Source: Planosporangium mesophilum (GTDB lineage: Bacteria; Actinomycetota; Actinomycetes; Mycobacteriales; Micromonosporaceae). Taken from it: a stretch of 43,790 nucleotides of DNA. Under the pieces are notes generated by a model. That model did not search any database and had not been told where the DNA came from. It saw only the letters and a program-made list of their open reading frames with translations. Positions 11,614 to 26,346 of the stretch are shown here, in pieces. Every line of letters starts with the position of its first letter. The stretch's first letter is position 1. The position numbers and the translations under genes are program-made. The stretch is taken from the NCBI RefSeq assembly GCF_016863255.1, contig NZ_BOON01000062.1, positions 1 to 43,790 of the forward strand. Direction: 5' to 3'.

Positions 11614-11664
11614 GCACTCAGCCTTACTGTCCCGACCCGTTGCTTAGTTGTGAGTCGGTGGATA

Positions 11665-11680
11665 TCGTTGCGTTTCGTTG
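11665..11680. promoter_or_regulatory. Direct repeat TCGTTG in the divergent kinase/aldolase promoter region
   Basis: TCGTTG at 11665-11670 and 11675-11680, exactly one helical turn apart, within the 154-bp space between the divergent FGGY kinase and aldolase genes. DeoR/GlpR-type regulators often bind short TTTCG-like direct repeats, and a DeoR gene is in the same operon. Assignment by position only. Confidence 0.4.
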
Positions 11681-11767
11681 GTGGGGTGTCAAGAGAACTG
11701 ATGTTCCTAAAAGGCACACCCGATTCGCCCGCGAGACGTCTCGCGCCCGTCACCTCGGAGGCAGTGG

Positions 11768-12628: not shown

Positions 12629-12680
12629 GCGCAGGGTCGGCGTCGCTCGGGATAACAAGAACACGGTGTGGCGACAACCC

Positions 12681-12739
12681 TTGACATGTTAAATCCGCGT
12701 GTCTAAGTTCTAACCACCCTGATGTGACATCGATTACCT
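12681..12739 (+). promoter_or_regulatory. Promoter-operator module 1 (TTGACA-N17-TAAGTT plus LacI-type box)
   Basis: -35 TTGACA at 12681-12686, 17-nt spacer, -10 TAAGTT at 12704-12709, then after 15 nt the operator TGACATCGATTACCT at 12725-12739. The operator is an imperfect palindrome around the central CG, as expected for LacI-family sites. It would block a promoter with +1 near 12716. Modules with the same layout occur at 13088 and 22057. Confidence 0.8.
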
Positions 12740-13087
12740 CATCTCGAATGGTGACCTCCGAGGGGGTGAGTCGTGCGGACAGTGGTGGCCCGACCAGGGC
12801 GACCGTCCTGTTCCACGGTGATCGGTCCGACGGGAGCGACTGGCGCGTGCGCCGGTGTCGCGGTGCGCGCGTCGTGCCCACATACGACGCGTCGTTCCGC
12901 GGGCCGTCGCCGAGCCGGTCGGTCGGCTTGCTCGACCCGGTGGTCGGGTAGGTGGGCCGATGCGTCACGCCTGCCGCGAAAGCCCTGAAACGCCTGTGGC
13001 ACAAGGGAAATCGTGGAGCGACGGGACGGATGAGGCCGGTTGAGAACGACCTGGTGGCGCACCCGGAGGATCACGGTCTGCAGAGGC
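12740..13087. other. Leader region between the tandem promoters
   Basis: About 350 bp between the two promoter-operator modules upstream of the binding-protein gene. A 67-codon frame from ATG 12749 to TAG 12951 has high G/C at third positions but no recognisable domain and no good ribosome-binding site. A non-coding leader is the safer reading. Confidence 0.4.
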
Positions 13088-13146
13088 TTGACATCCCCGG
13101 TCGCGATACCTAGCTTGGGTGCACTTGCCGGTGACATCGATTACCT
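13088..13146 (+). promoter_or_regulatory. Promoter-operator module 2 upstream of the ABC importer
   Basis: -35 TTGACA at 13088-13093, 17-nt spacer, -10 TAGCTT at 13111-13116, 15 nt, then the exact operator TGACATCGATTACCT at 13132-13146. It lies 407 bp downstream of module 1 and about 200 bp before the binding-protein ATG. It is the likely main promoter of the operon. Confidence 0.82.
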
Positions 13147-13342
13147 TTCCGTGACCGTAACGGCCATGGACGACCGGAACAGTGCGGCGTCGAACGTCGC
13201 TGATTGGACCCGCGCTCCCATGTGAACCAACGGCGTGACACCAGAACCCGGGTCGCGGACGAAGGCAGCCGGGGCAGCGGTGAATCAGCGGGTTAAGAGG
13301 CACATCCCCCACAACGACACATTCCTCGGAAGGATCCACCGC

Positions 13343-14386
13343 ATGTCAATCTTCGACGCAAGGATGACGCGACGCGTCTCCTTGGCCGCCGCGGCGGCCG
13401 CCGTCCTCGCCACGGCGACGGCGTGTGGCACGTCGTCGGGCTCGAAGTCCGGCAACAAGGAGATCACGATCGGCTGGTCGGTCGCCTACTTCGACCACCC
13501 CGTCTACCAGCTCATGATGGAGGGGATCAAGGAGGAGGCCGCCAAGCAGGGCGTGAAGGTCATCCTCGCGGACGGCAAGAACGACCCCGCCGTCCAGACC
13601 CAGCAGATCAACAACTTCCTGGCGCAGAAGGTCGACGGGATCATCCTGACCCCGGCAGTCTCCGACCCGATGATCCCGGCGGTCAAGAAGGTCAACGCGG
13701 CGAAGGTACCGTTCGCGATTGTCGACCGGCGGATGGAGACCAAGGGTTCGGGCATCAAGTGGGACTTCCTGGTCAGCTGGGACATGGTCAAGTCCGGCAC
13801 GGTCGGCGGTGAGCAGGTCGTCAAGGCGCTGAACGGCAAGGGCAAGATCGCCGTCGTCGAGGGCACCGCCGGCGCCGGCTCGACGGTCGACCGAGGCGGG
13901 GCGTTCTACAAGGTCATCGCCCAGAACCCGGGCATCCAGGTGGTCTACAAGGCGGACGGCGACTTCAAGCGCAGCGGTGGACAGCAGGTGACCGAGGCCA
14001 TCCTCCAGCGCTTCCCCAAGGGTGAGCTCGACGCCATCTACTACATGGCCGACGAGATGCTGTTCGGTGGCATCCAGGCGATCAACAACTCCGGTCGCCG
14101 CGAGGGCTTGAAGATCATCAGCTGTGACGGTGACAAGAACGCCCTGGACATTCTGCGCAAGGGCCAGATCGACTACGACGGCATCTTCTTCCCCAAGGAC
14201 GAGGGCGTCATCGGCACCCGGCTGATGGCTCAGAAGCTCAAGGGCCAGAAGCCGGAATTCGGCAACCAGGAGTACGAGGGCCGCAAGGCCGCTCTCGTCG
14301 AGTACGAGGGCATGCCCTGGGTGAAGCCGGACTTCTTCGGTGTCGATTCCAGCAACATGAACGACCCGATGTTCGTCGGCTGGTAA
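13343..14386 (+). CDS. Sugar ABC transporter substrate-binding lipoprotein
   Basis: A 347-aa periplasmic-binding-protein of the ribose/pentose class (Peripla_BP_4 type), anchored outside the membrane as a lipoprotein: basic start MSIFDARMTRR, hydrophobic Ala-rich stretch, lipobox ATAC. Mature segments include ITIGWSVAYFDHPVYQLM, QTQQINNFLAQKVDGIIL and PFAIVDRR. The ATG at 13343 is chosen for the GGAAGG upstream and the proper signal peptide; an earlier in-frame GTG would bury it. It is the first gene of the importer operon behind two promoter-operator modules, and a hairpin separates it from the ATPase gene. The ligand is unknown; family members bind aldoses, polyols or cyclitols. Confidence 0.92.
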   Translation: MSIFDARMTRRVSLAAAAAAVLATATACGTSSGSKSGNKEITIGWSVAYFDHPVYQLMMEGIKEEAAKQGVKVILADGKNDPAVQTQQINNFLAQKVDGIILTPAVSDPMIPAVKKVNAAKVPFAIVDRRMETKGSGIKWDFLVSWDMVKSGTVGGEQVVKALNGKGKIAVVEGTAGAGSTVDRGGAFYKVIAQNPGIQVVYKADGDFKRSGGQQVTEAILQRFPKGELDAIYYMADEMLFGGIQAINNSGRREGLKIISCDGDKNALDILRKGQIDYDGIFFPKDEGVIGTRLMAQKLKGQKPEFGNQEYEGRKAALVEYEGMPWVKPDFFGVDSSNMNDPMFVGW

Positions 14387-14425
14387 CAGCCCCGGCTCTG
14401 CATCGCGGACAGCAATCCGCACCGC

Positions 14426-14465
14426 CCCTTCCCGCTCGCCGACGGCCGGTGGTGAGCGGGAAGGG
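14426..14465 (+). terminator. Intra-operon hairpin after the binding-protein gene
   Basis: CCCTTCCCGCTC (14426-14437) pairs with GAGCGGGAAGGG (14454-14465), a 12-bp perfect stem with a 16-nt loop and no U-tract. At this place such hairpins commonly attenuate read-through or protect the upstream mRNA, giving more binding protein than ATPase. Confidence 0.65.
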
Positions 14466-14514
14466 CACCTTGTCGACCGACCGCCAACGGGGAGTACGAG
14501 AAAGGGGGCGTGCC

Positions 14515-16083
14515 ATGGTCGCTTCATCGGTTCCACAGCCCCTCCTGCGCATGGAGGGCATAACCAAGTCGTACGGCAACGTCCAGGTACTCCACGGCGT
14601 CGATCTCGAGGTCGGGCGCGGCGAGGTCCTGGGGCTGCTGGGCGAGAACGGTGCCGGCAAGTCGACGCTGCTGAACATCCTCAACGGGGTGCTCCAGCGC
14701 GACACCGGCTCCATCCACATCGACGGCGGGCCGGTCGAGTTCGCCGGGCCGAAGCAGGCGCAGGACGCCGGTCTGGCCTTCATCCACCAGGAACTGAGCG
14801 TCCTGCCGTACCTCACCGTCGCGGAGAACGTCTTCCTCGGCCGCCTGCCCCGCCGCAAGGGCCTACCCTGGCTGGTCGACTGGGCCGCCTGCTACCGGCA
14901 GGCCGGTGAGATCCTCGAACGCCTCGCGGTGAAGATCGACCCGCGTACGATCGTCGGCCGCCTGGGCACCGCCGAGCAGGAGCTCGTCGAGATCGCCAAG
15001 GCGCTGTCGATGAACGCCCGGATCATCACGATGGACGAGCCGACGGCGTCGCTGACCGAATCGGAGATCGAGCGGCTCTTCACCCTGATGCGGGCGTTGA
15101 AGGCCGACGGCGTCTCCGTCCTCTACGTCTCGCACCGCCTGCACGAGGTCGCCGAGATCTGCGACCGGGCCACCATCCTGCGCGACGGGAAGATCGTGAA
15201 CACCGTCGACGCCAGGACGACCAGCTCGCACACGCTGGCCACGATGATGGTGGGGCGCGAGCTGTCGGAGCTCTTCCCGAAGACCGAGCACGAGCGGGGC
15301 CGCGAGACCCTGCGGGTGTCCAACCTGTCGACCCCGAAGCTCAAGGACGTCAGCCTGACCGCGCACCGGGGCGAGATCCTGGGCATCGCCGGGCTCGTCG
15401 GCTCCGGCCGTACCGAGCTGGCCCGGGCCGTCTTCGGCGCCGATCCGATCACCGCCGGCGAGATCTTCGTCGAGGGCGAGAAGGTCAGGGTGGACTCGCC
15501 GGGCGCCGCCATCCGGAACGGCATCGGCCTGGTACCCGAGGACCGCAAGCACCAGGGCGCGGTCCTGTCGATGAGCAACGCGCACAACATCAGCCTCGCC
15601 AGCCTGTCGAAGGTGAGCCGGTTCGGTCAGCTCGACCGGGGCGGCGAGAAGCAGGCGGCCCGCAAACTCGTCCAGGACCTGCAGGTCTACCCGCCGCGCG
15701 CCGAGCAGGAGACCGGCCGGCTGAGCGGCGGCAACCAGCAGAAGGTGGTGCTGGCGAAGTGGCTGTTCGCCGGCTCGAAGATCCTCATCGTGGACGAGCC
15801 CACCCGCGGCGTCGACGTCGGCGCCCGGGCCGCCATCCACGGACTGCTCAACGACCTGGCCGGCGAGGGCGCGACGATCATCATGATCTCCTCGGACCTG
15901 CCCGAGGTCATGGGCATGAGCGACCGCATCCTCGTCATGCACGAAGGACGGATCGCCGGTGAGCTCGCCCGGGAGGACTTCAGCGAAGAGGCGATCGTCA
16001 TGTACGCCTCGGGCCTTGAGCCGACGAGAGACCTCGAGCCGGCGAGAGACCTCGAGCCAACGATAGAAGGGTCGAACGCGTGA
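14515..16083 (+). CDS. Sugar ABC transporter ATPase (tandem RbsA/MglA type)
   Basis: A 522-aa protein with two ATP-binding cassettes. First half: Walker A GENGAGKST, Q-loop IHQELSVLP, signature-like LGTAEQELVEIAKAL, Walker B IITMDEPTAS, SHR switch. Second half: degenerate Walker A GLVGSGRTE, signature LSGGNQQKVVLAKW, Walker B ILIVDEPTRGVDVGA. This is the standard arrangement of the ribose/galactose importer class. The ATG at 14515 has AAAGGGGG upstream; an earlier start adds an unconserved leader. The C terminus ends in a threefold EPTRDL/EPARDL/EPT repeat. The stop overlaps the permease GTG by 4 nt. Confidence 0.93.
   Translation: MVASSVPQPLLRMEGITKSYGNVQVLHGVDLEVGRGEVLGLLGENGAGKSTLLNILNGVLQRDTGSIHIDGGPVEFAGPKQAQDAGLAFIHQELSVLPYLTVAENVFLGRLPRRKGLPWLVDWAACYRQAGEILERLAVKIDPRTIVGRLGTAEQELVEIAKALSMNARIITMDEPTASLTESEIERLFTLMRALKADGVSVLYVSHRLHEVAEICDRATILRDGKIVNTVDARTTSSHTLATMMVGRELSELFPKTEHERGRETLRVSNLSTPKLKDVSLTAHRGEILGIAGLVGSGRTELARAVFGADPITAGEIFVEGEKVRVDSPGAAIRNGIGLVPEDRKHQGAVLSMSNAHNISLASLSKVSRFGQLDRGGEKQAARKLVQDLQVYPPRAEQETGRLSGGNQQKVVLAKWLFAGSKILIVDEPTRGVDVGARAAIHGLLNDLAGEGATIIMISSDLPEVMGMSDRILVMHEGRIAGELAREDFSEEAIVMYASGLEPTRDLEPARDLEPTIEGSNA
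16016..16068 (+). repeat. Three 18-bp tandem units at the 3' end of the ATPase gene
   Basis: Units of the form GAGCCGACGAGAGACCTC occur three times in a row with few changes, the last incomplete. They encode a charged EPTRDL-like tail. Family members usually lack such a tail. Probably recent slippage. Confidence 0.7.
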
Positions 16084-17129
16084 GCACCACCGCGCAGGCG
16101 GACCGCCAGCAGGTGGACCGCAAGGTCGTCGAAGCGCCCAAGCGCGGCCTGGCGAAGTTCAACATTCAGCTCGAGAACATCGCCAGCGCCGTCGTGCTGG
16201 TGGGCCTCGTGATCGTCCTGAGCCTCGTCTCGCCGGCGTTCCTGTCGTTCTCCAACTTCCTCGACATCGCCCGCGTCGTGTCCATCACCGGCATCATCGC
16301 CGCGGGCATGACCCTGGTCATCATCACCGGCGGCATCGACCTGTCGGTCGGCTCCACCGTCGGGCTGGTCGGGGCGGTCACCGCGTCGCTGGTCGCCGGG
16401 TCCGCCAGCAACTCCCACTTCGTCACCGACTTCAAGCTGCCGGTACCGCTGGCCGTCCTCGTCGGACTCGCCGTCGGCAGCCTCATCGGATTCATCAACG
16501 GTCTGATCATCACCAAGACCAAGATCGAGCCGTTCATGGCCACCCTCGGCTCGATGATCTTCGTCAAGGGCCTGCTGTACCTGTTCACGGGCGGCTACCC
16601 GGTCCACTTCGACCCCATGCCGCACGCCTTCGCGTTCATCGGACAGGGTGCGCTGCTCGGGATCCCGACGCCGGTCTGGCTGTTCGCGATCGTGGTCGCC
16701 GTGCTCTGGTGGATCTCGCGGCGCATGTCGGTCGGCCGCGCCATCTACGCCATCGGCGGCAACCCGGAAGCGGCCCGCCTGTCCGGGCTGAAGGTCGACC
16801 GGACGAAGATCTTCGTGTACACGCTCCTGGGCCTTCTCGCCGGTCTGGCGGGAGTCATCCTGACGTCGCGGCTCGCCAGCGCCGACACCGTCAACGGCAG
16901 CGGGTACGAGCTGATCGCGATCTCCGGGGTCGTGATCGGCGGTACGAGCCTCGTCGGTGGCCGCGGCTCGGTCATCAGCAGCCTCATCGGCGTCTTCACC
17001 GTCGGCGTCATCCAGAACGCGCTCAACCTGTTCGGGGCCTCGACGCAGGTGCAGTACGTCGTCACCGGTCTGGTGCTGCTGGCGGCGATCAGCCTCGACG
17101 GGATCGCCCGTCGCCGGAGGCGGTCATGA
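16080..17129 (+). CDS. Sugar ABC transporter permease 1 (RbsC type)
   Basis: A 349-aa polytopic membrane protein of the BPD_transp_2 family. Diagnostic stretches: [19 protein letters not shown], a family hallmark after the first helices; the conserved FMATLGSMIFVKGL; AIGGNPEAARLSGLKV, the loop thought to contact the ATPase; and VVIGGTSLVGGRGS near the C terminus. Start is a GTG within GTGA overlapping the ATPase stop. About 50 nt lie before the second permease. The two permeases would form a heterodimer channel. Confidence 0.93.
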   Translation: MSTTAQADRQQVDRKVVEAPKRGLAKFNIQLENIASAVVLVGLVIVLSLVSPAFLSFSNFLDIARVVSITGIIAAGMTLVIITGGIDLSVGSTVGLVGAVTASLVAGSASNSHFVTDFKLPVPLAVLVGLAVGSLIGFINGLIITKTKIEPFMATLGSMIFVKGLLYLFTGGYPVHFDPMPHAFAFIGQGALLGIPTPVWLFAIVVAVLWWISRRMSVGRAIYAIGGNPEAARLSGLKVDRTKIFVYTLLGLLAGLAGVILTSRLASADTVNGSGYELIAISGVVIGGTSLVGGRGSVISSLIGVFTVGVIQNALNLFGASTQVQYVVTGLVLLAAISLDGIARRRRRS

Positions 17130-17179
17130 GCGCGTCGAGGTCGCTTCGGTTCACCGTGGCAGAGAGCAGGAGCAGGTAG

Positions 17180-18259
17180 ATGTCGACGTCGGTAGTAGAG
17201 ACTGCGGGGCGAAAGACCGAGGCGAGCAAGCCCAAGGCCGGCCGCCGGCTGCCCGTACAGGGACAGCAACTGGCGCTGGTCGTGCTGATCGTCCTGCTCG
17301 CGGCCGGGTTCGTCAGCCGGTCGCCGGAGTTCCTGTCCCTGAGCAGCATCGAGAACCTGCTGCGCAGCGCCTCGATGTTCGGCATCGTCGGCCTGGGCAT
17401 GACGGTCGTCATCATCGCCACCGGATCGCTCGGCGGCATCGACCTGTCGGTCGGGTCCATGATGGCGCTCGGCGGCGCGATCGGCGCCGGGCTGCTCGGC
17501 ACCGCGTTCAGCGCCGCCAACCCGGTCAAGCTCCCGGCCGTCCTCGCCGTGCTGATCGCCCTTGCGGTGACGGCGATCCTCGGCGCCGTCAGTGGGTCGC
17601 TGATCTCGCGGCTGAAGCTCGCGCCGTTCGCGGTCACGCTCGGCATGATGAGCGTGGCGCGAGGGCTGACCTATCTGATGATCGCCTGGGCGATCGGCAG
17701 CTCCAACACCGCCGGGGTCACGTTCTCCGATCCGCTGTTCGACTGGTTCGGCCTCACTAACTACGGGCCGGTCCCGGCGATCACGGTTCTGTTCGTCGTG
17801 CTCGCCGCGCTGATCGCGTTCGTCCTCAAGGCGACGCCCTTCGGCCGGACCCTGTTCGTCCTGGGCGGCAACGCCGACAACGCCCGGCTGGCCGGCATCA
17901 ACGTCCGTCGGACGGTCGTGATCGTGTTCGCGCTCAGCGGGCTGCTGGCGGGCCTCGGCGGCCTGATCCTGACCGGCCGCCTGTCGTCGGCGTCACCGCT
18001 GGCGGCGACCGGCTACGAGCTCGAGGTCATCATGGTCGCGGTGATCGGCGGCACCAGCCTGTCCGGCGGCCGGGGCTCGATCCTCGGCACCGTCCTGGCC
18101 GCGATCCTCGTCAGCGAGATCGACACCGGCCTGGACATGATGAACGTCCCCTCCTTCAACCAGTACCTGATCAAGGGCACGATCCTCGTCCTGGCCGTCG
18201 TGCTGGACAAGGTGTACCAGGCCCGCAGCTCCCGGAAGCTGGCAGCAGCGAGCGCATGA
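17180..18259 (+). CDS. Sugar ABC transporter permease 2 (RbsC type)
   Basis: A 359-aa paralogue of the preceding permease with the same hallmarks: [24 protein letters not shown] (split as VGLGMTVVIIATG / [11 protein letters not shown], with a four-residue insertion SLGG relative to permease 1), LGGNADNARLAGINVRR, and VIGGTSLSGGRGS. AGGAGCAGG precedes the ATG. Sequence divergence from permease 1 is large, so this is an old heterodimer pair and not a recent duplication. It is followed after 55 nt by the second GMC oxidoreductase, suggesting that oxidation follows uptake directly. Confidence 0.93.
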   Translation: MSTSVVETAGRKTEASKPKAGRRLPVQGQQLALVVLIVLLAAGFVSRSPEFLSLSSIENLLRSASMFGIVGLGMTVVIIATGSLGGIDLSVGSMMALGGAIGAGLLGTAFSAANPVKLPAVLAVLIALAVTAILGAVSGSLISRLKLAPFAVTLGMMSVARGLTYLMIAWAIGSSNTAGVTFSDPLFDWFGLTNYGPVPAITVLFVVLAALIAFVLKATPFGRTLFVLGGNADNARLAGINVRRTVVIVFALSGLLAGLGGLILTGRLSSASPLAATGYELEVIMVAVIGGTSLSGGRGSILGTVLAAILVSEIDTGLDMMNVPSFNQYLIKGTILVLAVVLDKVYQARSSRKLAAASA

Positions 18260-18314
18260 CGTCACCAGCGGGTCGGGGCACCGTCCCGGCCCGCTCCGGT
18301 TGAGAGGGAGCTTC

Positions 18315-19970
18315 ATGGAGTACGCGAGGAAGCCCGACCCGGTCGACGTCCTCATCGTCGGCATGGGCGCGTCCGGTGCCACCGCCGCGAAGGTGCTGTG
18401 CGAAGCCGGCCTGAAGGTGGTCGGCCTGGAGCGCGGGCCGTGGCTACGGCCACGCGAGCACTTCTCCGGTGACGAGATCAAGTTCCTCAACCGGACCTAC
18501 CTGTGGTCGGACCCGCGGGTCAACCCCCGTACGGTGCGCATGGACGAGACCGAGACGGCCGTGCCGACGCCGTTCTCGATGGTGCCGCAGATGGTCGGCG
18601 GCGGAACGGTGCACTGGGCGGGCTGGCTGCCGCGGCCCCGCCCGTCGGACTTCATGATGCGGACCCTGCACGGCGACGTCGAGGGCGCCAGCCTCGCCGA
18701 CTGGCCGATCACGTACGACGACCTCGAGCCGTACCTGTCCAAGGTGGAGTGGGCCTTCGGCTGTGCCGGCCTGGACGGCGCGGACGCGTACGAGCCGTAC
18801 CGCAGCACGCCGTACCCGACGCCGCCGGCGCCACCGACCCGGGCCGGCAGACGCTTCTACTCCGCGTGCGAGAAGCTGGGCATCAACGCGATGCCGATCC
18901 CGCAGGCCCTGATCACCAAGCCGTTCCGCGGCCGGACCCCCTCCAACTGGACCAGCTTCTGGAACGGGTACGGCGACCCGAGCGGGATGCGCTCGTCGAC
19001 GCTGGACACGTTCGTACCGGAGGCGCTCGCCACCGGAAACCTCGAACTGCGGGCGGAGTGCTACGTACGCGAGGTGACGGTCGGCCCCGACGGCCGCGCC
19101 CGCGGGGTCGTGTACCTCGACGCCGACGGCCGGGAGATCGAGCAGGAGGCGAGCCTCGTCCTGCTGTGCCTCGGCGCGGTCGAGTCGGCGCGGCTGATGC
19201 TGCTGTCGACGTCGCGGCAGCACCCCGACGGCCTCGCCAACTCGAGCGGGCAGGTCGGGCGCAACGCGACGTTCCACGAGTACCTGTTCGCCGTCGGCCT
19301 GTTCAACGACTCCGAGCCGCTGTACGGCTTCCCGGGCAACTACATCAGCGGCGGCTCCTTCCAGTTCTACGAGACCGACTACGACCGTGGCCACATCGGC
19401 GGCGCCCTGATCGGCGCGTCACACGTCGGCCAGCCGATCAACTGGAACTTCCCGGGCCGGCCGTCATGGGGGAGCGCGGCCAAGGACGCCGACCGCGACT
19501 TCTACAACCACGCCATGAAGATCGGCCACACCCTGCACGACATGCCGGTCGAGTCGAACCGGGTGGACCTCGACCCGGTGGTCAAGGACGCGTGGGGCCT
19601 GCCGGCCGCCCGGATCACCCACCAGGCGCACCCCAACGACATCCGCCTGGCGAAGTGGCAGGTCGACAAGAACGTCGAGATCCTCGAGGCGGCGGGCGCC
19701 TGGAAGACGATCCCGGTCTACCTGGAGCGCGGTCGCGCCAGCGGCAACACCTGTCACCAGCACGGCACGGTGCGCATGGGCAACGACCCGGCGAAGACCG
19801 TCCTCGACAAGTGGTGCCGGGCGCACGACGTCGACAACCTGTACGTGCTCGACGGCGCGAGCTTCCCGACGGCCACCGGGGTCAACCCCACGCTGACCAT
19901 CATGGCCAACGCGTGGCGGTGCGCCGACTACATCTCCCAGGTCCACGCGAAGGAGGGTGCTCAGCGATGA
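18315..19970 (+). CDS. GMC-family FAD oxidoreductase (sugar/glycoside dehydrogenase type) 2
   Basis: A 551-aa flavoprotein related to but distinct from the enzyme at 6094. FAD loop GMGASG at 16-21 (VLIVGMGASGATAAKVL), ERGPWLRPREHF, GGGTVHWAGWLPRPRPSDF, and the C-terminal block NTCHQHGTVRMGND ... NLYVLDGASFPTATGVNPTLT with His of QHGT and Asn of GVNP as the likely catalytic pair. No export signal. The ATG at 18315 has GAGGGAG upstream. It is the fifth gene of the importer operon, and its stop overlaps the subunit-3 gene (ATGA). The operon position suggests it oxidises the imported substrate or an early product inside the cell, for example to a keto-sugar; this is inference. Confidence 0.88.
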   Translation: MEYARKPDPVDVLIVGMGASGATAAKVLCEAGLKVVGLERGPWLRPREHFSGDEIKFLNRTYLWSDPRVNPRTVRMDETETAVPTPFSMVPQMVGGGTVHWAGWLPRPRPSDFMMRTLHGDVEGASLADWPITYDDLEPYLSKVEWAFGCAGLDGADAYEPYRSTPYPTPPAPPTRAGRRFYSACEKLGINAMPIPQALITKPFRGRTPSNWTSFWNGYGDPSGMRSSTLDTFVPEALATGNLELRAECYVREVTVGPDGRARGVVYLDADGREIEQEASLVLLCLGAVESARLMLLSTSRQHPDGLANSSGQVGRNATFHEYLFAVGLFNDSEPLYGFPGNYISGGSFQFYETDYDRGHIGGALIGASHVGQPINWNFPGRPSWGSAAKDADRDFYNHAMKIGHTLHDMPVESNRVDLDPVVKDAWGLPAARITHQAHPNDIRLAKWQVDKNVEILEAAGAWKTIPVYLERGRASGNTCHQHGTVRMGNDPAKTVLDKWCRAHDVDNLYVLDGASFPTATGVNPTLTIMANAWRCADYISQVHAKEGAQR

Positions 19971-20671
19971 CCTCCATGGCTGACTGGCCCGTCGTCGGAG
20001 TACCGGCGGATCCCGGCTCTGACGAGCGGCTGTTCTTCGACGACCACGAGTGGGACACGATCGAGGCGGCCTGCGCCCGCATCATCCCCACGGATCACGA
20101 CCCCGGCGCGCGCGAGGCGGGCGCGGTACGGTTCATCGACCGGTACCTGTCCGGCATCGACTACGTGTACGCCGCCGCGGACGGCAGCGGGTTCCTGCGG
20201 ATGAGCGGCAAGCTCGCCGACGCCTGGCGGGCGCGGATCGCGGATCTGCAGGCGACCTACCGCCAGGGCGTCCGCGACCTCGACGCAGGAGCCCGTGAGC
20301 GCTTCGGGTCGGACTTCGTGTCGCTGTCCGACACCGACCGGGACGCGGTCCTGGAACAGCTGTCCGGCGCGCCGAAGCCGGCGCCCGTCGCGCTCACCGG
20401 CGACGGGGGAAACCCCACCATCCAGGTGTACGCGTTCGACGACGGCCTGGCCTTCTTCGACGCCCTCGTGGCACACACCCGGCAGGGCTTCTACGGCGAC
20501 CCGGTCTACGGCGGCAACGCCGGCCGGGTCGGCTGGCGGGTGATCGGGTTCCCCGGCCCGGAGTCCCTGAAGGACACCATGGACGGCACGTACAGCGTGC
20601 GCGGGTACTACGTGCAGGACTACGACTGGCGCGACCTCATTCCGCACCTGAGAGGGGCGGACGCGTCCTGA
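19967..20671 (+). CDS. Gluconate 2-dehydrogenase subunit 3-like protein 2
   Basis: A 234-aa soluble protein. The conserved beginning FFDDHEWDTIEAACARIIPTDHDPGAREAGAVRFID (split as FFDDHEWDTIEAACARIIPT / DHDPGAREAGAVRFID) is the hallmark of gluconate_2-dh3, as are HTRQGFYGDPVYGGN and GWRVIGFPGP. These are normally small partners of GMC flavoproteins. AGGAGGG at 19951-19957 drives the ATG, which overlaps the GMC stop by 4 nt. No Tat signal, no heme CxxCH motif. No cytochrome c subunit follows, in contrast to many proteobacterial three-subunit enzymes. Last gene of the operon; a hairpin follows. Confidence 0.87.
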   Translation: MTSMADWPVVGVPADPGSDERLFFDDHEWDTIEAACARIIPTDHDPGAREAGAVRFIDRYLSGIDYVYAAADGSGFLRMSGKLADAWRARIADLQATYRQGVRDLDAGARERFGSDFVSLSDTDRDAVLEQLSGAPKPAPVALTGDGGNPTIQVYAFDDGLAFFDALVAHTRQGFYGDPVYGGNAGRVGWRVIGFPGPESLKDTMDGTYSVRGYYVQDYDWRDLIPHLRGADAS

Positions 20672-20681
20672 CCTCCACCGT

Positions 20682-20714
20682 CGCCGGTCCGCTCCGCTGC
20701 GGAGCAGGACGGCG
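20682..20714. terminator. Hairpin ending the importer-GMC operon
   Basis: GCTCCG (20691-20696) / CGGAGC (20700-20705) with a 3-nt loop, extended by GTCC/GGAC and CGCC/GGCG with one-base bulges to about 14 pairs. It follows the last operon gene by 10 nt. No U-tract. Confidence 0.65.
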
Positions 20715-20827
20715 TCTGGGATGGTGAGCCCGGGCGCCGACGGCGAGCCCGGCAACGATGAACGGTGACCTAACATCGACACATCAACGTCTATGAGCAC
20801 AGATGGACGTCTGGGTGACCCCAGGCG

Positions 20828-20842
20828 TAACAACGATTACCT
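20828..20842 (+). promoter_or_regulatory. LacI-type operator in front of lacI
   Basis: TAACAACGATTACCT differs from the 15-mer at 12725, 13132 and 22101 in only two positions and lies 35 nt before the lacI ATG. It suggests autoregulation. No TTGACA-N17-TAnnnT promoter stands at the spacing seen at the other sites, so the promoter here is different or weaker. Confidence 0.7.
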
Positions 20843-20876
20843 CATTCCACGTGGTGAGGGCGGCGGGGGTGTCTGG

Positions 20877-21890
20877 ATGAAGAAACCGGTGCGACTCAGT
20901 GACGTCGCCGCCGCTGCCGAGACGAGCGCCAAGACCGCGTCGCGCGTGATCAACGGCGATCCACGGGTGTCGGCGGAGACCCGCCGGCGGGTGGAGGAGG
21001 CGGTGGACCGCCTGGGGTACCGCGTCGACCTGCTGGCCAGGTCGTTGCGCCGCGGTGTGGACGACACGATCGGTGTCATCGTGGAGTCGATCGCCGACCC
21101 GTTCTTCGCGGCCGTCATCAGCGAGATCGAACTCGCCGCGCTCCGTCGCGGCCTGAACGTCATCGTGACGAGCAACCGGCGACTGCCGAACCGCGAGGCA
21201 GCCATCGTCGACAGCCTCCAGCAGCGCCGGGTCGCCGGCCTGATCATCACGCCGCACACCTCGGACCTGTCGTACCTGGCGTCCACCGGCACCCCGGTCG
21301 TCTTCGTGGACCGCCACCCCGGGAACTTCCCGGCGGACGTCGTGACGTTCGACGACCGCGGCGGCGCGCGGACGGCCGTGCGTCATCTGCTTCGCTACGG
21401 TCATCAGCGGGTCGCGTTCATCAGCGACGACCTGGGGGTCGAGACCTCCCGTAACCGGCACGCGGGCTACGTGGACGCGCTCCAGGAGTCCGGCCTTCCC
21501 GTGGTGGGCGAACTCGTCGCCACCGACTGTTCCGACGCGGCGATGGCCCGGGCACGTACCTGCGAGTTCCTGGACCTCGACGAGCCACCGACCGCGATCT
21601 TCAGCGCCCGGTCGGAGACCTCGCTGGGGGCGGTGAAGGTGCTTCACGACCGGAAACGCACCGACATCGCCATGGTGTCGTTCGGCGACTTCGCCCTGGC
21701 CGACGTCCTGTCGCCGGCGATCACCGTGCTCGAGCAGTCGCCGGAACTTCTCGGCCGGCTCGCGGCCGAGCGGCTCTTCGCCCGGCTGGACGGCGACCAC
21801 AGCGACCCGGTCAACACGGTCATCCCGCTGCGTCTGGTTCCCCGTGGATCAGGCGAGATCGTCCCGAGCGGCGGTGGCGCCGGGGCGTGA
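20877..21890 (+). CDS. LacI-family transcriptional regulator
   Basis: A 337-aa repressor-type protein. N-terminal LacI helix-turn-helix: VRLSDVAAAAETSAKTASRV (split from INGDPRVSAETRRRVEEA), followed by the hinge-helix region LLARSLRRG and a periplasmic-binding-like sensor domain (TIGVIVESIADPFFAAVISE, RRVAGLIITP, GHQRVAFISDD, SFGDFALADVLSPAITVLEQ). The ATG at 20877 is preceded by GGCGGGGG. Because the gene lies between the operons carrying the shared 15-bp operator and has a variant in its own promoter, it is the obvious candidate to bind it. The effector is presumably the imported sugar or a derivative. Confidence 0.92.
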   Translation: MKKPVRLSDVAAAAETSAKTASRVINGDPRVSAETRRRVEEAVDRLGYRVDLLARSLRRGVDDTIGVIVESIADPFFAAVISEIELAALRRGLNVIVTSNRRLPNREAAIVDSLQQRRVAGLIITPHTSDLSYLASTGTPVVFVDRHPGNFPADVVTFDDRGGARTAVRHLLRYGHQRVAFISDDLGVETSRNRHAGYVDALQESGLPVVGELVATDCSDAAMARARTCEFLDLDEPPTAIFSARSETSLGAVKVLHDRKRTDIAMVSFGDFALADVLSPAITVLEQSPELLGRLAAERLFARLDGDHSDPVNTVIPLRLVPRGSGEIVPSGGGAGA

Positions 21891-22056
21891 CGGTCAGGCT
21901 TCGGCCGATGCGCGGGCGGCCCACCGCCGACGCCATCGGCGGTCCCACCGTGTCTTCGCAGAGGCGCGGAGGGCGTCGCGATACAGGGATTTCGCGATGG
22001 TTCCGGGTGTCCGACCGCTGCATTTCCGTCCCCGTCCGCCCCGTACGCCGAACTGC
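21891..22056. other. Intergenic stretch after lacI
   Basis: About 165 bp with no gene, hairpin or repeat that I can support. The rest of the gap up to the nitrilase gene holds promoter-operator module 3 and a ~180-nt leader. Confidence 0.5.
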
Positions 22057-22115
22057 TTGACACGTCAGATGGAGGTGTTTACGGTGTTGTTTCGAGGCCG
22101 TGACATCGATTACCT
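22057..22115 (+). promoter_or_regulatory. Promoter-operator module 3 upstream of the nitrilase operon
   Basis: -35 TTGACA at 22057-22062, 17-nt spacer, -10 TACGGT at 22080-22085, 15 nt, operator TGACATCGATTACCT at 22101-22115. Layout identical to modules 1 and 2. The nitrilase GTG is 183 nt further on. Confidence 0.82.
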
Positions 22116-22298
22116 AAGCCCCGGAGTGCCGGGGCGCGGCGGCGCAGCCTCTGCGGACGTAGCCCGCCCGAGCATCACCAATCCACGTCGTGCAGCGTCG
22201 CTGGTGTGAAACCGCACCCGTACCGAGCAACGACGCGCTTGTAAGAAGAGTGCCGAGCGGCATACCGCTGAGGCGCATGAGTCAGGAGGAAACTGACT

Positions 22299-23384
22299 GT
22301 GGTTGAGCCGTACGGAGTGGTGGCGATCTCGCCGCGCATCGTCACGATGAAGAAGCGCGAAGACGCCGTCGAAAGCGCCAAGCGCATCTGCAACTTCATG
22401 GACATGGCGGTCCGCACCGCCGCCACCGAGGGCGCGCCGGTCAAGCTGGTCGTGCTGCCCGAGATGGCCATCCAGGGCATGCCGGAGGACTTCAAGGCCG
22501 GCAACCGGGAGGCCCACGCGTCGTTCGCCACGACCGTCCCCGGCCCGGAGACCGACGTCCTGGCGGCAAAGGCCCGCGAGCTGAACACCTACATCGCCGC
22601 CGAGCTGCTGTTCGTGACCGACGAGGACTTCCCGGGTCACCTGTTCAACGTGGCGTTCATCATCAACCCCGAGGGCGAGGTCATCTACAAGCGGGCCAAG
22701 TCCACCAGCGACGCCTACGAGGGTGGCGCGCTGGGCACCACCAACCCCCACGACATCTACGACGAGTGGGTGGCCAAGAAGGGCAACGGCAACGTCCTCG
22801 ACGCCATCTTCCCGGTCGCCAAGACCGAGATCGGCAACATCGGCTACATCATCTGCCACGAGGGTGCCTACCCGGAGACCTCCCGCGGTCTGGCGATGAA
22901 CGGCGCGGAGATCATCATCCGGGCCACGCTGATCGACCCGCAGACCAGCCAGGGCATGTGGGAGCTGCAGAACCGCGCCCACGCCATGTTCAACCAGACC
23001 TACGTGGTCTCGCCGAACCTGGGCCCGCAGTGCTACGACGACGGGACCATGTTCGACCTGTTCGGCGGCCGGTCGATGATCGTGGACAGCAAGGGCCACG
23101 TCGTCGCCCGCCAGGAGGGCGTGGTCCCCGGCGACTCGTTCGTCAGCTGCGTCATCGACATCGAGGCGCTGCGCCGTGCCCGCGCGCAGAACGGCGTCAT
23201 GAACTGGTTCAAGGACCTGCGCACCGAGCAGTACGCGGCCATCTACGAGCAGCCCATCTACGAGAAGCACCAGTACGTCGAGGAGCTGCCGCAGGAGGGC
23301 TGGCTGGCCCGCGAGGGCGTACGTCGCCAGGGCAACATCGACAAGCTCGTCGAGCGGGGCATCATCACCCCGCCCTCGGCCTGA
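22299..23384 (+). CDS. Nitrilase-superfamily C-N hydrolase
   Basis: A 361-aa cytoplasmic enzyme with the Glu-Lys-Cys triad of the carbon-nitrogen hydrolase fold: Glu in VVLPEMAIQG, Lys in VIYKRAKST, Cys in IGYIICHEGAYPE. PGPETDVLAAKA and NRAHAMFNQTYVVSPNLGP resemble the amidase/formamidase side of the family more than true nitrilases. GTG at 22299 follows an excellent AGGAGGA (22284-22290). First gene behind promoter-operator module 3, then ADH, Gfo/Idh and SDR genes. A C-N hydrolase inside a sugar regulon hints at a nitrogen-containing substrate or amide intermediate. Precise substrate unknown. Confidence 0.85.
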   Translation: MVEPYGVVAISPRIVTMKKREDAVESAKRICNFMDMAVRTAATEGAPVKLVVLPEMAIQGMPEDFKAGNREAHASFATTVPGPETDVLAAKARELNTYIAAELLFVTDEDFPGHLFNVAFIINPEGEVIYKRAKSTSDAYEGGALGTTNPHDIYDEWVAKKGNGNVLDAIFPVAKTEIGNIGYIICHEGAYPETSRGLAMNGAEIIIRATLIDPQTSQGMWELQNRAHAMFNQTYVVSPNLGPQCYDDGTMFDLFGGRSMIVDSKGHVVARQEGVVPGDSFVSCVIDIEALRRARAQNGVMNWFKDLRTEQYAAIYEQPIYEKHQYVEELPQEGWLAREGVRRQGNIDKLVERGIITPPSA

Positions 23385-23403
23385 CCTTTTCGACCATGTA
23401 GAA

Positions 23404-23447
23404 CGCTCGACCCTTCCAGTACGCGTCATCGCTGGAAGGGTCGAGCG
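23404..23447 (+). terminator. 16-bp hairpin between nitrilase and ADH genes
   Basis: CGCTCGACCCTTCCAG (23404-23419) pairs perfectly with 23432-23447 across a 12-nt loop. No U-tract. It may be a partial terminator or mRNA-stabilising element giving unequal expression of nitrilase and the dehydrogenases. Confidence 0.7.
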
Positions 23448-23478
23448 GCGTCTATCGCCTTTCTTGAGGAGCACATAC

Positions 23479-24483
23479 ATGAAGGCAGCCCTACTCGAAC
23501 AAACCGGCCCGATCGAGAGCAAGCCGCTGACGCTGCGCGAGGTGGCCGACCCCACCCCGTCGGCGACCCAGATCGTCATCAAGGTGGGCGCGTGCGGTGT
23601 CTGCCGCTCCAACCTGCACATGGTCGAAGGTGACTGGCTGCCCAACACCCCGGCGTCCTTCCCGATCATCCCCGGCCACGAGGTCGTGGGTACGGTCTCG
23701 TCGGTCGGCTCGGCCGTCACGCACCTCAAGGTCGGCGACCGGGTCGGCGTCCAGCCGATCTGGAAGACCTGCGGGGTCTGCGAGTACTGCTTCTCCGGCC
23801 GCGAGCAGCTGTGCCGCCAGCGGCAGATCACGGGGGAGACCCTCGACGGCGGCTACGCCGAGTACATGCTCGCCGAGTCGGCGTATGCGTACCCGCTGCC
23901 GGACAACCTCTCCTTCGAGGAGGCCGCACCGCTGTTCTGCCCCGGCATCACCGCGTACGGCTCGGTGTCCAAGGCACACCTGACCCCCGGCCAGAAGGTC
24001 GCCGTGCTGGGCGTCGGCGGCGTGGGCCACATGGTGATCCAGATGGCCGCCCTCACCGGCGCCGGCGTGTACGCCGTGACCCGTAGCTCGGTGCACCAGG
24101 GCGTGGCCGAGGAGCTGGGCGCGGTCGCCTCGTACAGCCCCAAGGGCTCGGGTGGCAACAACCTCACCGACAACGCGATGGACGCCGCGATCGTGTTCGC
24201 GCCGTCGGACGCCTCGGTCGCCGAAGCGATGCGCGTCGTCAAGCCGGGCGGGCGGATCGTCCTGGGTGTCGCCCAGAACGTCGGCCTGCTCGACATCGGT
24301 GACGAGCGGACCGTTGTCGGCTCGGTGCTGGGCAACCGCCAGCAGATGCGCGACGTCCTCGACCTCGCCGCCGCCGGCAAGCTGCGCTCGGTCCACGCCG
24401 ACTATCCGCTCGCCGAGGCCAACGAGGTGCTGGCGATGCTCAAGGCCGGCCAGGTCAAGGCGCGCGCCGTCCTCGTTCCGTAA
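23479..24483 (+). CDS. Zinc-dependent alcohol dehydrogenase (MDR family)
   Basis: A 334-aa medium-chain dehydrogenase. Catalytic zinc ligands in GACGVCRSN and GHEVVGTV; structural zinc from the four Cys of TCGVCEYCFSGREQLC; NAD(P) loop VLGVGGVGHMVIQMA. The Cys pattern and GxGGxGH loop match bacterial class ADHs acting on primary or polyol alcohols. ATG at 23479 with GAGGAG upstream. It follows the nitrilase after a hairpin and is 31 nt ahead of the Gfo/Idh gene, so transcription from the LacI-type promoter is likely. Substrate unknown. Confidence 0.9.
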   Translation: MKAALLEQTGPIESKPLTLREVADPTPSATQIVIKVGACGVCRSNLHMVEGDWLPNTPASFPIIPGHEVVGTVSSVGSAVTHLKVGDRVGVQPIWKTCGVCEYCFSGREQLCRQRQITGETLDGGYAEYMLAESAYAYPLPDNLSFEEAAPLFCPGITAYGSVSKAHLTPGQKVAVLGVGGVGHMVIQMAALTGAGVYAVTRSSVHQGVAEELGAVASYSPKGSGGNNLTDNAMDAAIVFAPSDASVAEAMRVVKPGGRIVLGVAQNVGLLDIGDERTVVGSVLGNRQQMRDVLDLAAAGKLRSVHADYPLAEANEVLAMLKAGQVKARAVLVP

Positions 24484-24514
24484 GTTCGCCCACAACGACG
24501 ACAGGGAGTTCCAC

Positions 24515-25639
24515 GTGTCGACCGAGGACCCAACGGCACGGTCCGGACCGGTGCGCTTCGGCGTCGTCGGCCACGGCTGGCGCGCGGACTTCTACCTCCG
24601 CCTCGCCCGCCTGGCCCCGGACCGCTTCCGGTGCGTCGGTGCGGTGACCCGGCGCGCCGAGGTGGGCGAGCGGCTGGAACGCGAGTGGAACATCCCGACG
24701 TACCGGACCCCGGAGGAGCTCGTCTCCTCCGGGGCGCCGGAGGTCGTCGTCACCTCCGTACCGAGGGAGGCCAACCCCGGCGTCATCGGGGCGCTCGTCG
24801 GGCTCGACACGGCGGTGCTGTCGGAGACGCCGCCCGCCGCGGATGCCGACGGGATGCGGCGGCTGTGGGCCGATGTCGGCGCGCGTGACCTGGTGCAGGT
24901 GGCCGAGCAGCACCCGTACCTGCCGGTCGTGGCCGCGGTGCGCTCGCTGGTCGACCAGGGGGTTCTGGGCGACGTGAGTTCCGCGCAGGTGTCCTGGACG
25001 CACGACTACCACGCCATGGCGCTGCTGCGGACCCTGCTCGGCGTACGGGCGGAGCCGGCGCGGATCAGCGCGGTCGAGACCACCGCGCCGGTACTGGAGG
25101 GGCCGGACCGCGGTGGATGGCCGGACGTCCAGCGGGTGCAGGACGCCGTGCACACCCTGTCCATTCTCGACTTCGGCGGCCGGACCGGCGTCTACGACTT
25201 CACCGAGGGCCAGTGGTTCCACCCCTGGCGCCGCCGGCACCTGATCCTGCGCGGCAGCCGTGGGGAGATCGTGGGCAACGACGTCATCTGGGCGGGTGAC
25301 GACGGCCGGCCGCTGTCCGCGCCGATCGTACGGCGCCACCTCGGGTTCGACGGCAACCTCGAAGGCGCCGACCTCGACACGCTGAGCTGGTGCGGCCGGA
25401 CGCTCTACCGCAACCCGTACCCGGGCTCCCGCCTGTCGGACGAGGAGATCGCCATCGCCACCTGCCTCGAGCGGACGGCGCTCTGGCGGCGCGGTGAAGC
25501 TCCCGCGCCGTACCCGCTCGCCGACGCCTGCCAGGACCACCTGCTGGCGCTCACTGTCCACGAGGCGGCCGAGCGGGGTGAGCCGGTGACGACCGGCGTC
25601 GAACCGTGGGCCGACGCTGTCCGAGGAGTCTGGGAATGA
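24515..25639 (+). CDS. Gfo/Idh/MocA-family oxidoreductase
   Basis: A 374-aa NAD(P)-dependent sugar/cyclitol oxidoreductase. The Rossmann start FGVVGHGWRADFYLRLARL has GxGxxx in place of the commoner GxGxxG. The EKP-like motif region reads VLSETPPAAD, with EKP replaced by ETP, so the usual catalytic Lys is absent at that place. AEQHPYLPVV and the C-terminal catalytic/substrate region GYDF-like VYDFTEGQW follow. GTG at 24515 after GGGAG; the stop overlaps the SDR ATG (ATGA). Family members oxidise or epimerise sugars, inositols and 3-keto-glycosides. The altered motif suggests a lyase/hydratase-like or divergent member. Confidence 0.8.
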   Translation: MSTEDPTARSGPVRFGVVGHGWRADFYLRLARLAPDRFRCVGAVTRRAEVGERLEREWNIPTYRTPEELVSSGAPEVVVTSVPREANPGVIGALVGLDTAVLSETPPAADADGMRRLWADVGARDLVQVAEQHPYLPVVAAVRSLVDQGVLGDVSSAQVSWTHDYHAMALLRTLLGVRAEPARISAVETTAPVLEGPDRGGWPDVQRVQDAVHTLSILDFGGRTGVYDFTEGQWFHPWRRRHLILRGSRGEIVGNDVIWAGDDGRPLSAPIVRRHLGFDGNLEGADLDTLSWCGRTLYRNPYPGSRLSDEEIAIATCLERTALWRRGEAPAPYPLADACQDHLLALTVHEAAERGEPVTTGVEPWADAVRGVWE

Positions 25640-26346
25640 CATCGCTCGCGGGAAAGGTCGCCTTCGTCACCGGGGCGAGCAGCGGTATCGGCGCCGCGGT
25701 CGCACGCGCCCTGGCGGCCGAAGGCGTCAAGCTGGGGCTCACCTCCCGACGGCCGGTGGACCTCGGGCTGCCCGACTGCGTGAACGCGGCCTGCGACGTC
25801 CGGGACCTGGCGCAGGTGGAGGCCGCCGTCGCGGCGACGGTCGACCGCTTCGGCGGCATCGACATCGTCGTGGCGAACGCGGGCGTCGGCTCGTGGGGGC
25901 CGTTCGAGAACACGCCCGTCGAGGATCTCGACGAGATGGTGGACGTCAACGTCCGCGGTCTGTTCCACACCGTCCGGGCGGCGCTGCCACAGCTCAAGGC
26001 GCGCGGTGCGGGTGACCTCATCACGGTCGCCTCCGAAGCCGGTCGGCGCGGACTTCCGGACGAAGCGGCGTACGTGGCGACCAAGTTCGCCTCGGTGGGG
26101 TTCACCCGGTCGCTGGACCACGAGCTTCGCGGCTACGGCATCCGCTGCACCAACATCTGCCCGGGCGGCGTCGCCACCAACTTCGGGATGGGGCGGGGCC
26201 TGCGTAACCCGGAGATGCCGGAACTCGCGGACATGATGCGCCCGGAGGACGTGGCCGAGATGGTGGTTTTCGCGCTCACCCGGCCGCGCCATTACCGGAT
26301 GCTCGAAGTCGCATTCCGTTCCATGACCGAACAGTCCTGGGGCTGA
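25636..26346 (+). CDS. Short-chain dehydrogenase/reductase
   Basis: A 236-aa classical SDR. Cofactor loop TGASSGIG, NAG motif VVANAGVG, active-site Ser in ITVASEAGRRG and Tyr/Lys in AYVATKFAS, then PGGVATNFG. The absence of an acidic residue at the usual place after beta-2 (LTSRRP has Arg-Arg) favours NADP(H). ATG overlaps the Gfo/Idh stop by 4 nt, so the two are co-translated. Probably interconverts an alcohol and ketone in the same pathway. Last gene of the unit; the transhydrogenase genes follow after 156 bp. Confidence 0.9.
   Translation: MTSLAGKVAFVTGASSGIGAAVARALAAEGVKLGLTSRRPVDLGLPDCVNAACDVRDLAQVEAAVAATVDRFGGIDIVVANAGVGSWGPFENTPVEDLDEMVDVNVRGLFHTVRAALPQLKARGAGDLITVASEAGRRGLPDEAAYVATKFASVGFTRSLDHELRGYGIRCTNICPGGVATNFGMGRGLRNPEMPELADMMRPEDVAEMVVFALTRPRHYRMLEVAFRSMTEQSWG

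What the first reader, a model, noticed from the sequence alone, without database searches (positions are those of the whole stretch)
12681..22115. A local LacI regulon with an invariant promoter-operator module used three times
TGACATCGATTACCT is exactly repeated at 12725, 13132 and 22101 and varied at two bases at 20828. At all three exact sites it is preceded by TTGACA, a 17-nt spacer, a TAnnnT -10 box and exactly 15 nt. Chance recurrence of the whole layout is very unlikely. It groups the ABC importer/GMC operon, lacI itself and the nitrilase/ADH/Gfo-Idh/SDR operon under one regulator, giving the pathway membership.
Basis: partly seen in the sequence, partly recalled or inferred. Interest (0 to 1): 0.72.

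Follow-up and report, generated by a model that had tools for sequence, protein, structure and literature searches.

The report
Lopsided one-way docking site for repressor
An actinobacterium appears to switch two neighbouring sets of transport and metabolism genes with one local repressor, whose DNA docking site is unusual for its family because its two halves differ and it points one way along the genes.

Summary
TGACATCGATTACCT lies at 12725, 13132 and 22101, with a two-base variant at 20828; the exact 15-mer occurs nowhere else in the 6.62-Mb genome. All three exact sites carry TTGACA-N17-TAnnnT-N15. Two modules sit in tandem before one operon, so the regulon is two operons plus perhaps lacI. 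The 20828 site has no such promoter, and "exactly 15" is not kept in relatives.

The LacI assignment is strongly supported. In 300 genomes of the family, all 11 with the exact 15-mer carry this LacI clade (recognition helix TS[AT]KTASR), a single branch of the tree, and sites recur around differently built clusters.

The surprise is the operator. Non-clade relatives mostly show a palindrome, TGACATCGATGTCA (LL). The clade joins that left half to a new right half, GATTACC (LR): 41 exact LR sites in 20 loci of 19 genomes, against 4 RR and 1 LL. With near matches there are 45 LR sites: 41 on the lacI strand, 4 divergent and facing their own reading frame. The halves differ at the family's specificity bases. 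A homodimer alone cannot explain a fixed direction; common descent could. Nothing was tested biochemically, and the substrate is unknown.

The parts
12681..12739 (+). Module P1: TTGACA (12681-12686), N17, TAAGTT (12704-12709), N15, operator TGACATCGATTACCT (12725-12739); distal promoter of the importer operon (promoter role inferred)
   Evidence: syntenic site in G002 and G011 and G162
13088..13146 (+). Module P2: TTGACA, N17, TAGCTT, N15, operator (13132-13146); proximal promoter of the importer operon (promoter role inferred)
   Evidence: syntenic in G002, G011, G162
13343..14386 (+). Sugar-type substrate-binding protein (Peripla_BP_4)
   Evidence: 88.8% and 84.2% identical copies in G002 and G011
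14449..16083 (+). Double ABC ATPase of a CUT2-type sugar importer (start codon uncertain)
16080..17129 (+). Importer permease 1 (BPD_transp_2)
17180..18259 (+). Importer permease 2 (BPD_transp_2)
18300..19970 (+). GMC oxidoreductase (start codon uncertain)
19961..20671 (+). Gluconate 2-dehydrogenase subunit 3-like protein (start codon uncertain)
20828..20842 (+). Variant operator TAACAACGATTACCT before lacI, no TTGACA module
   Evidence: TGACAACGATTACCT at the same place in G002
20877..21890 (+). LacI-family regulator, recognition helix TSAKTASRVIN, proposed to bind the operators
22057..22115 (+). Module P3: TTGACA, N17, TACGGT, N15, operator (22101-22115); promoter of the nitrilase operon (promoter role inferred)
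   Evidence: syntenic in G002 and G011 and in G162, where the nitrilase gene follows
22299..23384 (+). Nitrilase-superfamily amidohydrolase (CN_hydrolase)
   Evidence: 95.8% identical in G011, 94.9% over the part fetched in G162
23464..24483 (+). Zinc alcohol dehydrogenase
24530..25639 (+). Gfo/Idh/MocA oxidoreductase (start codon uncertain)
25606..26346 (+). Short-chain dehydrogenase

Best explanation
The LacI-family protein at 20877 is a local repressor. As a homodimer it binds a CG-centred 14-16 bp operator, roughly (C/T)GTGACAWC|GATTACCT, just downstream of promoters P1, P2 and P3 (about +9 to +23 if transcription starts about 7 nt after the -10 box). It blocks initiation or promoter escape of the importer/GMC operon and of the nitrilase/ADH/Gfo-Idh/SDR operon, perhaps also of its own gene through the variant site at 20828. 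An inducer related to the imported compound releases it. The operator is a mixed form of the palindrome TGACATCGATGTCA seen with the regulator's relatives: one half is shared (TGACAWC, promoter side), the other is new (GATTACC, gene side), and the direction relative to transcription is kept. Shown by sequence: sites, layout, exclusivity, co-occurrence with the LacI clade, mixed halves, fixed direction in the loci examined. Inferred: binding, repression, homodimer, inducer, start sites, and that the palindrome is the older form. Why the direction is fixed is not known; besides plain descent, my leading functional guess is that the promoter-side and gene-side protomers play different parts in blocking or releasing RNA polymerase.
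For: Exact 15-mer only in this cluster; layout only here. In 300 family genomes 11 have the exact 15-mer, and all 11 are among the 13 with a LacI hit at E <= 1e-85; the two others (G043, G093) have VSxKTVSR helices and no site in the fetched loci L074 and L073. In the loci scanned, every locus with a site and a readable LacI helix has TS[AT]KTASR, and no locus with V at that first position has a site. Sites are syntenic in G002 and G011 (LacI 93% and 86%) and G162 (87%), and recur before differently built PfkB-LacI-FGGY clusters where LacI is 52-57% identical while kinases and transporters are about 25-42%. The clade is one branch, 20 of 113 rows, support 100/97. Positions in the DNA-binding part differ between clade and non-clade: T16 20/20 against 0/90, A21 20/20 against 3/90, L7 20/20 against 11/87, R30 18/20 against 1/88, D51 20/20 against 10/91, and R6 20/20 against 1/16 (few rows reach it). 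Relatives: LL within 400 nt upstream of lacI in 53 of 93 non-clade loci, anywhere in 70 of 93, mixed or RR in 2 of 93 (91 distinct places). Exact site classes in 20 clade loci: LR 41 (both strands), RR 4, LL 1; reversed-sequence control 0. Direction: 45 LR sites; 39 on the lacI strand within the stretch, 4 divergent, 2 (G162) in a stretch without lacI but on the lacI strand of the same contig. 15 of the 45 have no TTGAC upstream, so direction does not merely follow the promoter module.
Against: No binding or expression data. The -10 boxes are poor (3 of 6) and a stricter scan finds no promoter. The sites were first found with the asymmetric pattern, which inflates its apparent invariance; one search is less biased, but its half-sites come from the same data. 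The sites are not independent: near relatives were counted, and the LacI clade is one evolutionary event. 23 of 93 non-clade loci show no LL site at all. The lacI-upstream site was not found in G011 and G162. The f2 genomes have sites with CGACATC and ACCCC or ACCAA ends. One clade locus (L078) also has an exact LL site. E. coli lac O1 is itself asymmetric (Camas 2010, passages), so asymmetry alone is not new.
Confidence: 0.85

Rival explanations
1. On the direction only: the mixed operator is an ordinary degenerate site of a homodimer, and its direction is merely inherited. The sites descend from an ancestral promoter-operator by vertical descent and copying, with no function in the direction.
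For: LacI clade is one branch. Three modules in this genome share one layout. RR sites in four genomes of one family and one exact LL site in L078 show that both half types also occur in symmetric pairs in clade loci.
Against: Module spacers in this genome are barely alike: 5, 9 and 6 of 17 spacer bases and 4, 4 and 5 of 15 bases after the -10 match pairwise. 15 of 45 sites have no TTGAC upstream yet keep the direction. The four sites on the strand opposite to lacI face a reading frame of their own. With LacI at 52-57% identity there was probably time for flips (inference).
Confidence: 0.45
2. Two different proteins read the two halves: a heterodimer of this LacI with another LacI, or a second regulator overlapping one half.
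For: Left half equals the half-site seen with TVSR-type relatives, right half is new. A fixed direction would follow if the two proteins have different places relative to polymerase.
Against: No second LacI hit in the 14 clade stretches examined by tblastn at 1e-6 nor on the window's contig. The 15 other LacI-like hits in this genome are at most 37% identical. The genome has no exact LL site and two with 1 mismatch. DeoR of the window cluster has no hit at 1e-8 in L032-L034. RR sites need no second protein. Other regulators in the distant loci were not looked for.
Confidence: 0.1
3. The motif acts in the RNA leader, not as a DNA operator, which would explain one direction and a position after the promoter.
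For: LR sites are in sense direction of the cluster; GTRA-N6-TTAC could pair.
Against: No Rfam match at gathering score in 11500-23000. The four window leaders fold about as shuffles do (z 0.17, -0.06, -1.56, 0.56). The half-site differences fall on LacI specificity bases. RR sites break the N6 pairing. The motif tracks a DNA-binding protein clade.
Confidence: 0.04
4. Chance or a general genomic element.
For: Fourteen-letter matches without the LacI clade exist: 12 of the 20 fetched stretches have no clade LacI nearby.
Against: Exact 15-mer only in this cluster; 0 of 100 shuffles reach four matches; reversed-pattern control 0 in the 300 genomes; the 15-mer tracks the LacI clade.
Confidence: 0.01

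Closest known systems
LacI-family local regulons with palindromic CG-centred operators (Ravcheev et al. 2014, PMC4052901, passages read)
   Same: LacI-type regulator next to its target sugar-type operons; CG-centred even site; possible autoregulation; few sites, local.
   Different: [quoted passage not shown] here the two halves differ consistently and the site keeps one direction.
TVSR recognition code of the LacI family (Camas et al. 2010, PMC2978694, passages, section 9)
   Same: Halves agree at the central bases and at NT-6, which the paper links to the conserved arginine, and differ at NT-4 and NT-5, which it ties to specificity (also at NT-7).
   Different: This clade has TASR, not TVSR, so it lies outside the set the code was made for. 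[quoted passage not shown] here one direction is seen.
E. coli lac operator O1
   Same: Asymmetric natural operator (Camas passages), just after the start site (recalled).
   Different: O1 asymmetry comes with an intervening central base; here the site is even and CG-centred, with two different half sequences.
TVSR-type LacI homologues with TGACATCGATGTCA nearby (exact in L095 Arthrobacter sp. B0490 and L117 Micromonospora globispora)
   Same: Related LacI proteins (about 37-50% identity); shared left half TGACAWC.
   Different: Symmetric site; V16 in 90 of 90 and V21 in 87 of 90 non-clade rows instead of T16 and A21.

Membership tests
LacI-family transcription factor | LacI HTH domain plus periplasmic-binding-protein-like sensor domain | tested here: met
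   PF00356 48.6 bits (cut-off 27), PF13377 97.7 (26.5), PF00532 95.2 (22.2)
LacI-family transcription factor | Even, CG-centred operator | tested here: met
   All four window sites have CG at the centre without it being asked for beyond the motif itself; CG was a search condition and proves nothing
[quoted passage not shown]
   LR 41 exact against RR 4 and LL 1 in 20 clade loci. This describes most operators of the family, not the protein family, so protein membership stands.
TVSR recognition group | TVSR in the recognition helix | tested here: not met
   TASR in 20 of 20 clade rows; A21 also in 3 of 90 non-clade rows
Local LacI regulon | Sites confined to operons next to the regulator gene | tested here: met
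   weaker matches elsewhere lack the layout
Local LacI regulon | Autoregulation of lacI | tested here: inconclusive
   Variant site at 20828 and in G002; none at up to 2 mismatches before lacI in G011 or G162
Repressor acting by promoter occlusion | Binding at the site represses transcription until an inducer binds | not testable with these tools
   needs gel shift, footprint, expression
Tetrameric, DNA-looping LacI | C-terminal tetramerisation helix | not tested
   337 aa against 360 for the E. coli chain 3edc_A, which suggests it is absent; no structure was predicted

The most novel reading that the evidence does not exclude
A LacI-family clade has evolved a polar operator. A symmetric homodimer reads two different half-sites, and the direction of the site matters for repression or induction, for example because the promoter-side protomer is let go or displaced differently from the gene-side anchor. 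This would make operator orientation a regulatory variable in a family described as using palindromes.
Probability: 0.3. Interest if true: 0.72.

Novelty: new variant of a known kind. Interest (0 to 1): 0.52.

Why it matters
LacI-family repressors are a model for how proteins read DNA. Here relatives with a palindromic site and a clade with a mixed, direction-fixed site can be compared side by side. The change goes with a few DNA-binding residues (T16 and A21 above all), so the step from one code to another is open to direct test. It also gives two operons of an uncharacterised catabolic route a candidate regulator.

Tried and rejected
Three modules for three operons: rejected. P1 and P2 both precede the importer operon, 407 bp apart, and the same pair exists 414, 365 and 370 bp apart in G002, G011 and G162. 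A small conserved gene between P1 and P2: not supported; the aligned stretch has scattered gaps and the 67-aa frame has no Pfam match at E <= 1.

A fused GMC/gluconate-dehydrogenase protein from the 18503 frame: rejected. Its first half is the wrong frame of a separate GMC gene. The 'GMC' query was still this faulty frame, so GMC identities there are not quoted.

RNA element: no Rfam match, ordinary folds. Perfect palindrome GGTAATCGATTACC in this genome: none exact, 13 places with 2 mismatches. A known operator in print: text searches for TGACATCGATTACC and TGACATCGATGTCA found 0 papers. Word searches on asymmetric, oriented, chimeric or Micromonospora LacI operators held 1, 0, 13 and 29 papers (up to 8 listed each), and two broader LacI searches. 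Of these I opened only PMC4052901 (passages) and PMC2978694 (passages and section 9); the rest I saw as listings. All this covers only the held open-access library. Whole-phylum sample: 1 of 396 genomes (this one) has a LacI at E <= 1e-90, at most 5 candidates scored a genome.

Pathway: comparison with solved structures gave general families or nothing; no substrate could be named.

Counting notes: the family protein search scored at most 7 candidates a genome. Most of the non-clade set was found with peptide patterns, one of which fixes SxKT[AV]SRV, so contrasts at those residues are biased. Two non-clade places were counted twice (L073/L076, L074/L077), and one search also held longer copies of four further loci (L035-L038). 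Non-clade reversed control: 4 inexact sites. L075 (clade helix, MAG labelled Planctomycetota) has only 63 nt before its LacI match and no site; it is in the tree but not in the site counts. L014, L068 and others were replaced in the site counts by longer stretches of the same genomes. Twelve fetched stretches with a 14-letter match and no clade LacI nearby were left out of the site counts (L204, L205, L209-L218). The three 1-mismatch places elsewhere in this genome were only glanced at.
Full report
Observation. The 15-mer TGACATCGATTACCT is present at 12725, 13132 and 22101, with a two-mismatch copy at 20828; 0 of 100 shuffles gave as many matches. In the whole genome (6.62 Mb, 103 contigs) the exact 15-mer is found only at these three places. 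A relaxed promoter-plus-operator pattern is found only there too, with 0 in the reversed control. All three exact sites have TTGACA, 17 nt, TAAGTT / TAGCTT / TACGGT, 15 nt. The -10 boxes match the consensus at 3 of 6 positions, and a stricter promoter scan reports none in the region, so the promoters are plausible rather than proven. Looser matches to the operator exist elsewhere (three places with 1 mismatch to TRACANCGATTACC), without the layout.

Gene context. P1 (12681) and P2 (13088) both precede an operon for a CUT2-type sugar importer (13343-18259) followed by a GMC oxidoreductase (18300-19970) and a gluconate 2-dehydrogenase subunit 3-like protein (19961-20671). lacI follows (20877-21890). 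P3 (22057) precedes a nitrilase-superfamily protein, an alcohol dehydrogenase, a Gfo/Idh protein and a short-chain dehydrogenase (22299-26346). The 20828 site lies before lacI but has no TTGAC within 62 nt upstream.

Phylogenetic footprint. G002 (LacI 93%) and G011 (LacI 86%) keep P1 and P2 before the importer, and a site at the P3 position after lacI; in G011 the nitrilase operon follows, while the G002 contig ends first. G162 (LacI 87%) has the paired sites between the aldolase and the substrate-binding protein, and a site after lacI before the nitrilase gene.

Link to LacI. In a 300-genome sample of the family, 11 have the exact 15-mer and 13 have a LacI hit at E <= 1e-85; all 11 are among the 13. 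The two without (G043, G093) have VSIKTVSR and VSAKTVSR helices, whereas clade members have TS[AT]KTASR. A search of 397 genomes of the order for TGACAWCGATTACC found 19 genomes. I fetched 20 stretches, two of them (G125, G104) already known from the family search. Of the other 18, 6 held the clade LacI with sites (L201, L202, L203, L206, L207, L208) and 12 held no clade LacI, so 14-letter matches alone can be unrelated. In f13, f2, g19 and G003 the LacI is 52-57% identical and sits with a PfkB kinase, an FGGY kinase and an importer in most stretches (PfkB not scored in L201 and L202; no importer next to the cluster in L207 and L208). Those neighbours are about 25-42% identical to the window's (one aldolase fragment in L203 is 70%, seen in no other of these stretches), so LacI is the best-conserved part they have in common. 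A tree of 113 LacI proteins puts the 20 T16/A21 proteins on one branch (100/97). T16 (20/20 against 0/90) and A21 (20/20 against 3/90) stand out; L7, R30, D51 and, on few rows, R6 also differ (residue numbers of the window protein).

The operator is not a palindrome. Non-clade relatives share the palindrome TGACATCGATGTCA: in 97 loci (1.56 Mb, some places held twice) it occurs 2 times exactly, 20 times with one and 46 times with two mismatches, against at most 1 for each of six scrambled palindromes. With up to one mismatch per half, 53 of 93 non-clade loci (91 distinct places) have it within 400 nt upstream of lacI and 70 of 93 anywhere; 23 have none, and 2 of 93 have a mixed or RR site. The clade shows the other pattern. 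In 20 loci of 19 genomes there are 41 exact mixed sites, 4 exact GGTAATCGATTACC sites and 1 exact LL site (L078); the reversed-sequence control gave none. The four symmetric RR sites lie just past the FGGY gene, one in each of four genomes of family f13; importer genes follow in two (L034, L206) and were not scored there in L207 and L208. Inexact matches in the clade were LR/RL 7 and LL 4; some of these may lie inside genes and be chance.

Grammar of the halves. Read outward from the centre, TGACATC and GGTAATC agree at NT-1, NT-2, NT-3 and NT-6 and differ at NT-4, NT-5 and NT-7. Camas et al. 2010 (PMC2978694; passages, section 9) tie NT-4 and NT-5 to specificity and NT-6 to the conserved arginine. 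The mixed site is therefore a LacI-family site whose two halves carry different specificity letters. Ravcheev et al. 2014 (PMC4052901, passages) describe the family's motifs as palindromes of highly conserved inverted repeats, mostly even with a central CG.

Direction. With up to two mismatches and an intact CGATTACC there are 45 mixed sites in the 20 loci. 39 lie on the strand of the lacI in the stretch, 4 on the other strand, and 2 (G162) in a stretch without lacI; on the G162 contig those 2 are on the lacI strand too. The 4 on the other strand (L032:5890, L201:9036, L202:3757, L203:9369) face a same-strand reading frame; in L201 and L202 the frame's first possible start lies just before the site. 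Reading frames were checked for 17 sites in 8 loci. So, as far as strand shows, all 45 point along the genes they precede, though they are not independent of each other. 15 of 45 have no TTGAC in the 62 nt upstream. For a homodimer alone a mixed site and its reverse are the same object, so binding energy cannot fix the direction; either descent or contact with the transcription machinery must.

Alternatives. A second LacI was not seen in the 14 clade stretches; the other LacI-like hits in this genome are at most 37% identical; the genome has no exact LL site and two with one mismatch. RNA structure is not supported. Common descent of the direction is a serious rival, weakened by the poor similarity of the module spacers (5, 9, 6 of 17) and by sites lacking the module.

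Verdict. What makes it worth a second look is the mixed, one-way operator of a small, rare LacI clade (1 of 396 genomes in a phylum sample). Its family f1 is probably Micromonosporaceae: the loci of two f1 genomes (G093, G043) are letter for letter contained in records titled Micromonospora sp. CPCC 205371 and Micromonosporaceae bacterium HOG30. Substrate and inducer remain unknown.

Noticed in passing
window 8464-12628: Neighbouring genes: PfkB kinase above the NCBIfam 1-phosphofructokinase cut-off, DeoR regulator, FGGY kinase and a class II aldolase; the window scan puts no LR site before them except P1, which follows the aldolase. Distant clade members have PfkB and FGGY genes beside their LacI.
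   Followed up: partly
window 26419-29455: PntAB transhydrogenase genes directly follow the nitrilase/ADH/Gfo-Idh/SDR operon; one search shows no PntA or PntB hit at 1e-8 in the G011 stretch, so operon membership is open.
   Followed up: partly
window 18503-20671: A 722-aa open frame is a misleading composite: its first ~490 residues are the wrong frame of the GMC gene at 18300-19970.
   Followed up: yes
L217:8259 (G036) and L205:8197 (G716): TGACATCGATTACC or TGACAACGATTACC lies 51 bp before an SDR-like match in two genomes of one genus, with no LacI hit in the fetched stretch; either chance in a conserved region or extra regulon members.
   Followed up: no
L075: A short contig of a MAG labelled Planctomycetota carries a LacI of this clade (58%); gene transfer or a wrongly binned contig.
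   Followed up: no
L033, L051, L052, L053, L054, L056 (genus g19): Two mixed operators in the same direction start exactly 22 bp apart (about two helical turns) before a PfkB gene in six genomes.
   Followed up: partly
window 29619-31376 (-): Protein with right-handed beta-helix and pectate-lyase-like domains.
   Followed up: no
window 33540-35369 (+): Protein with a C-terminal cellulose-binding domain, CBM_2.
   Followed up: no
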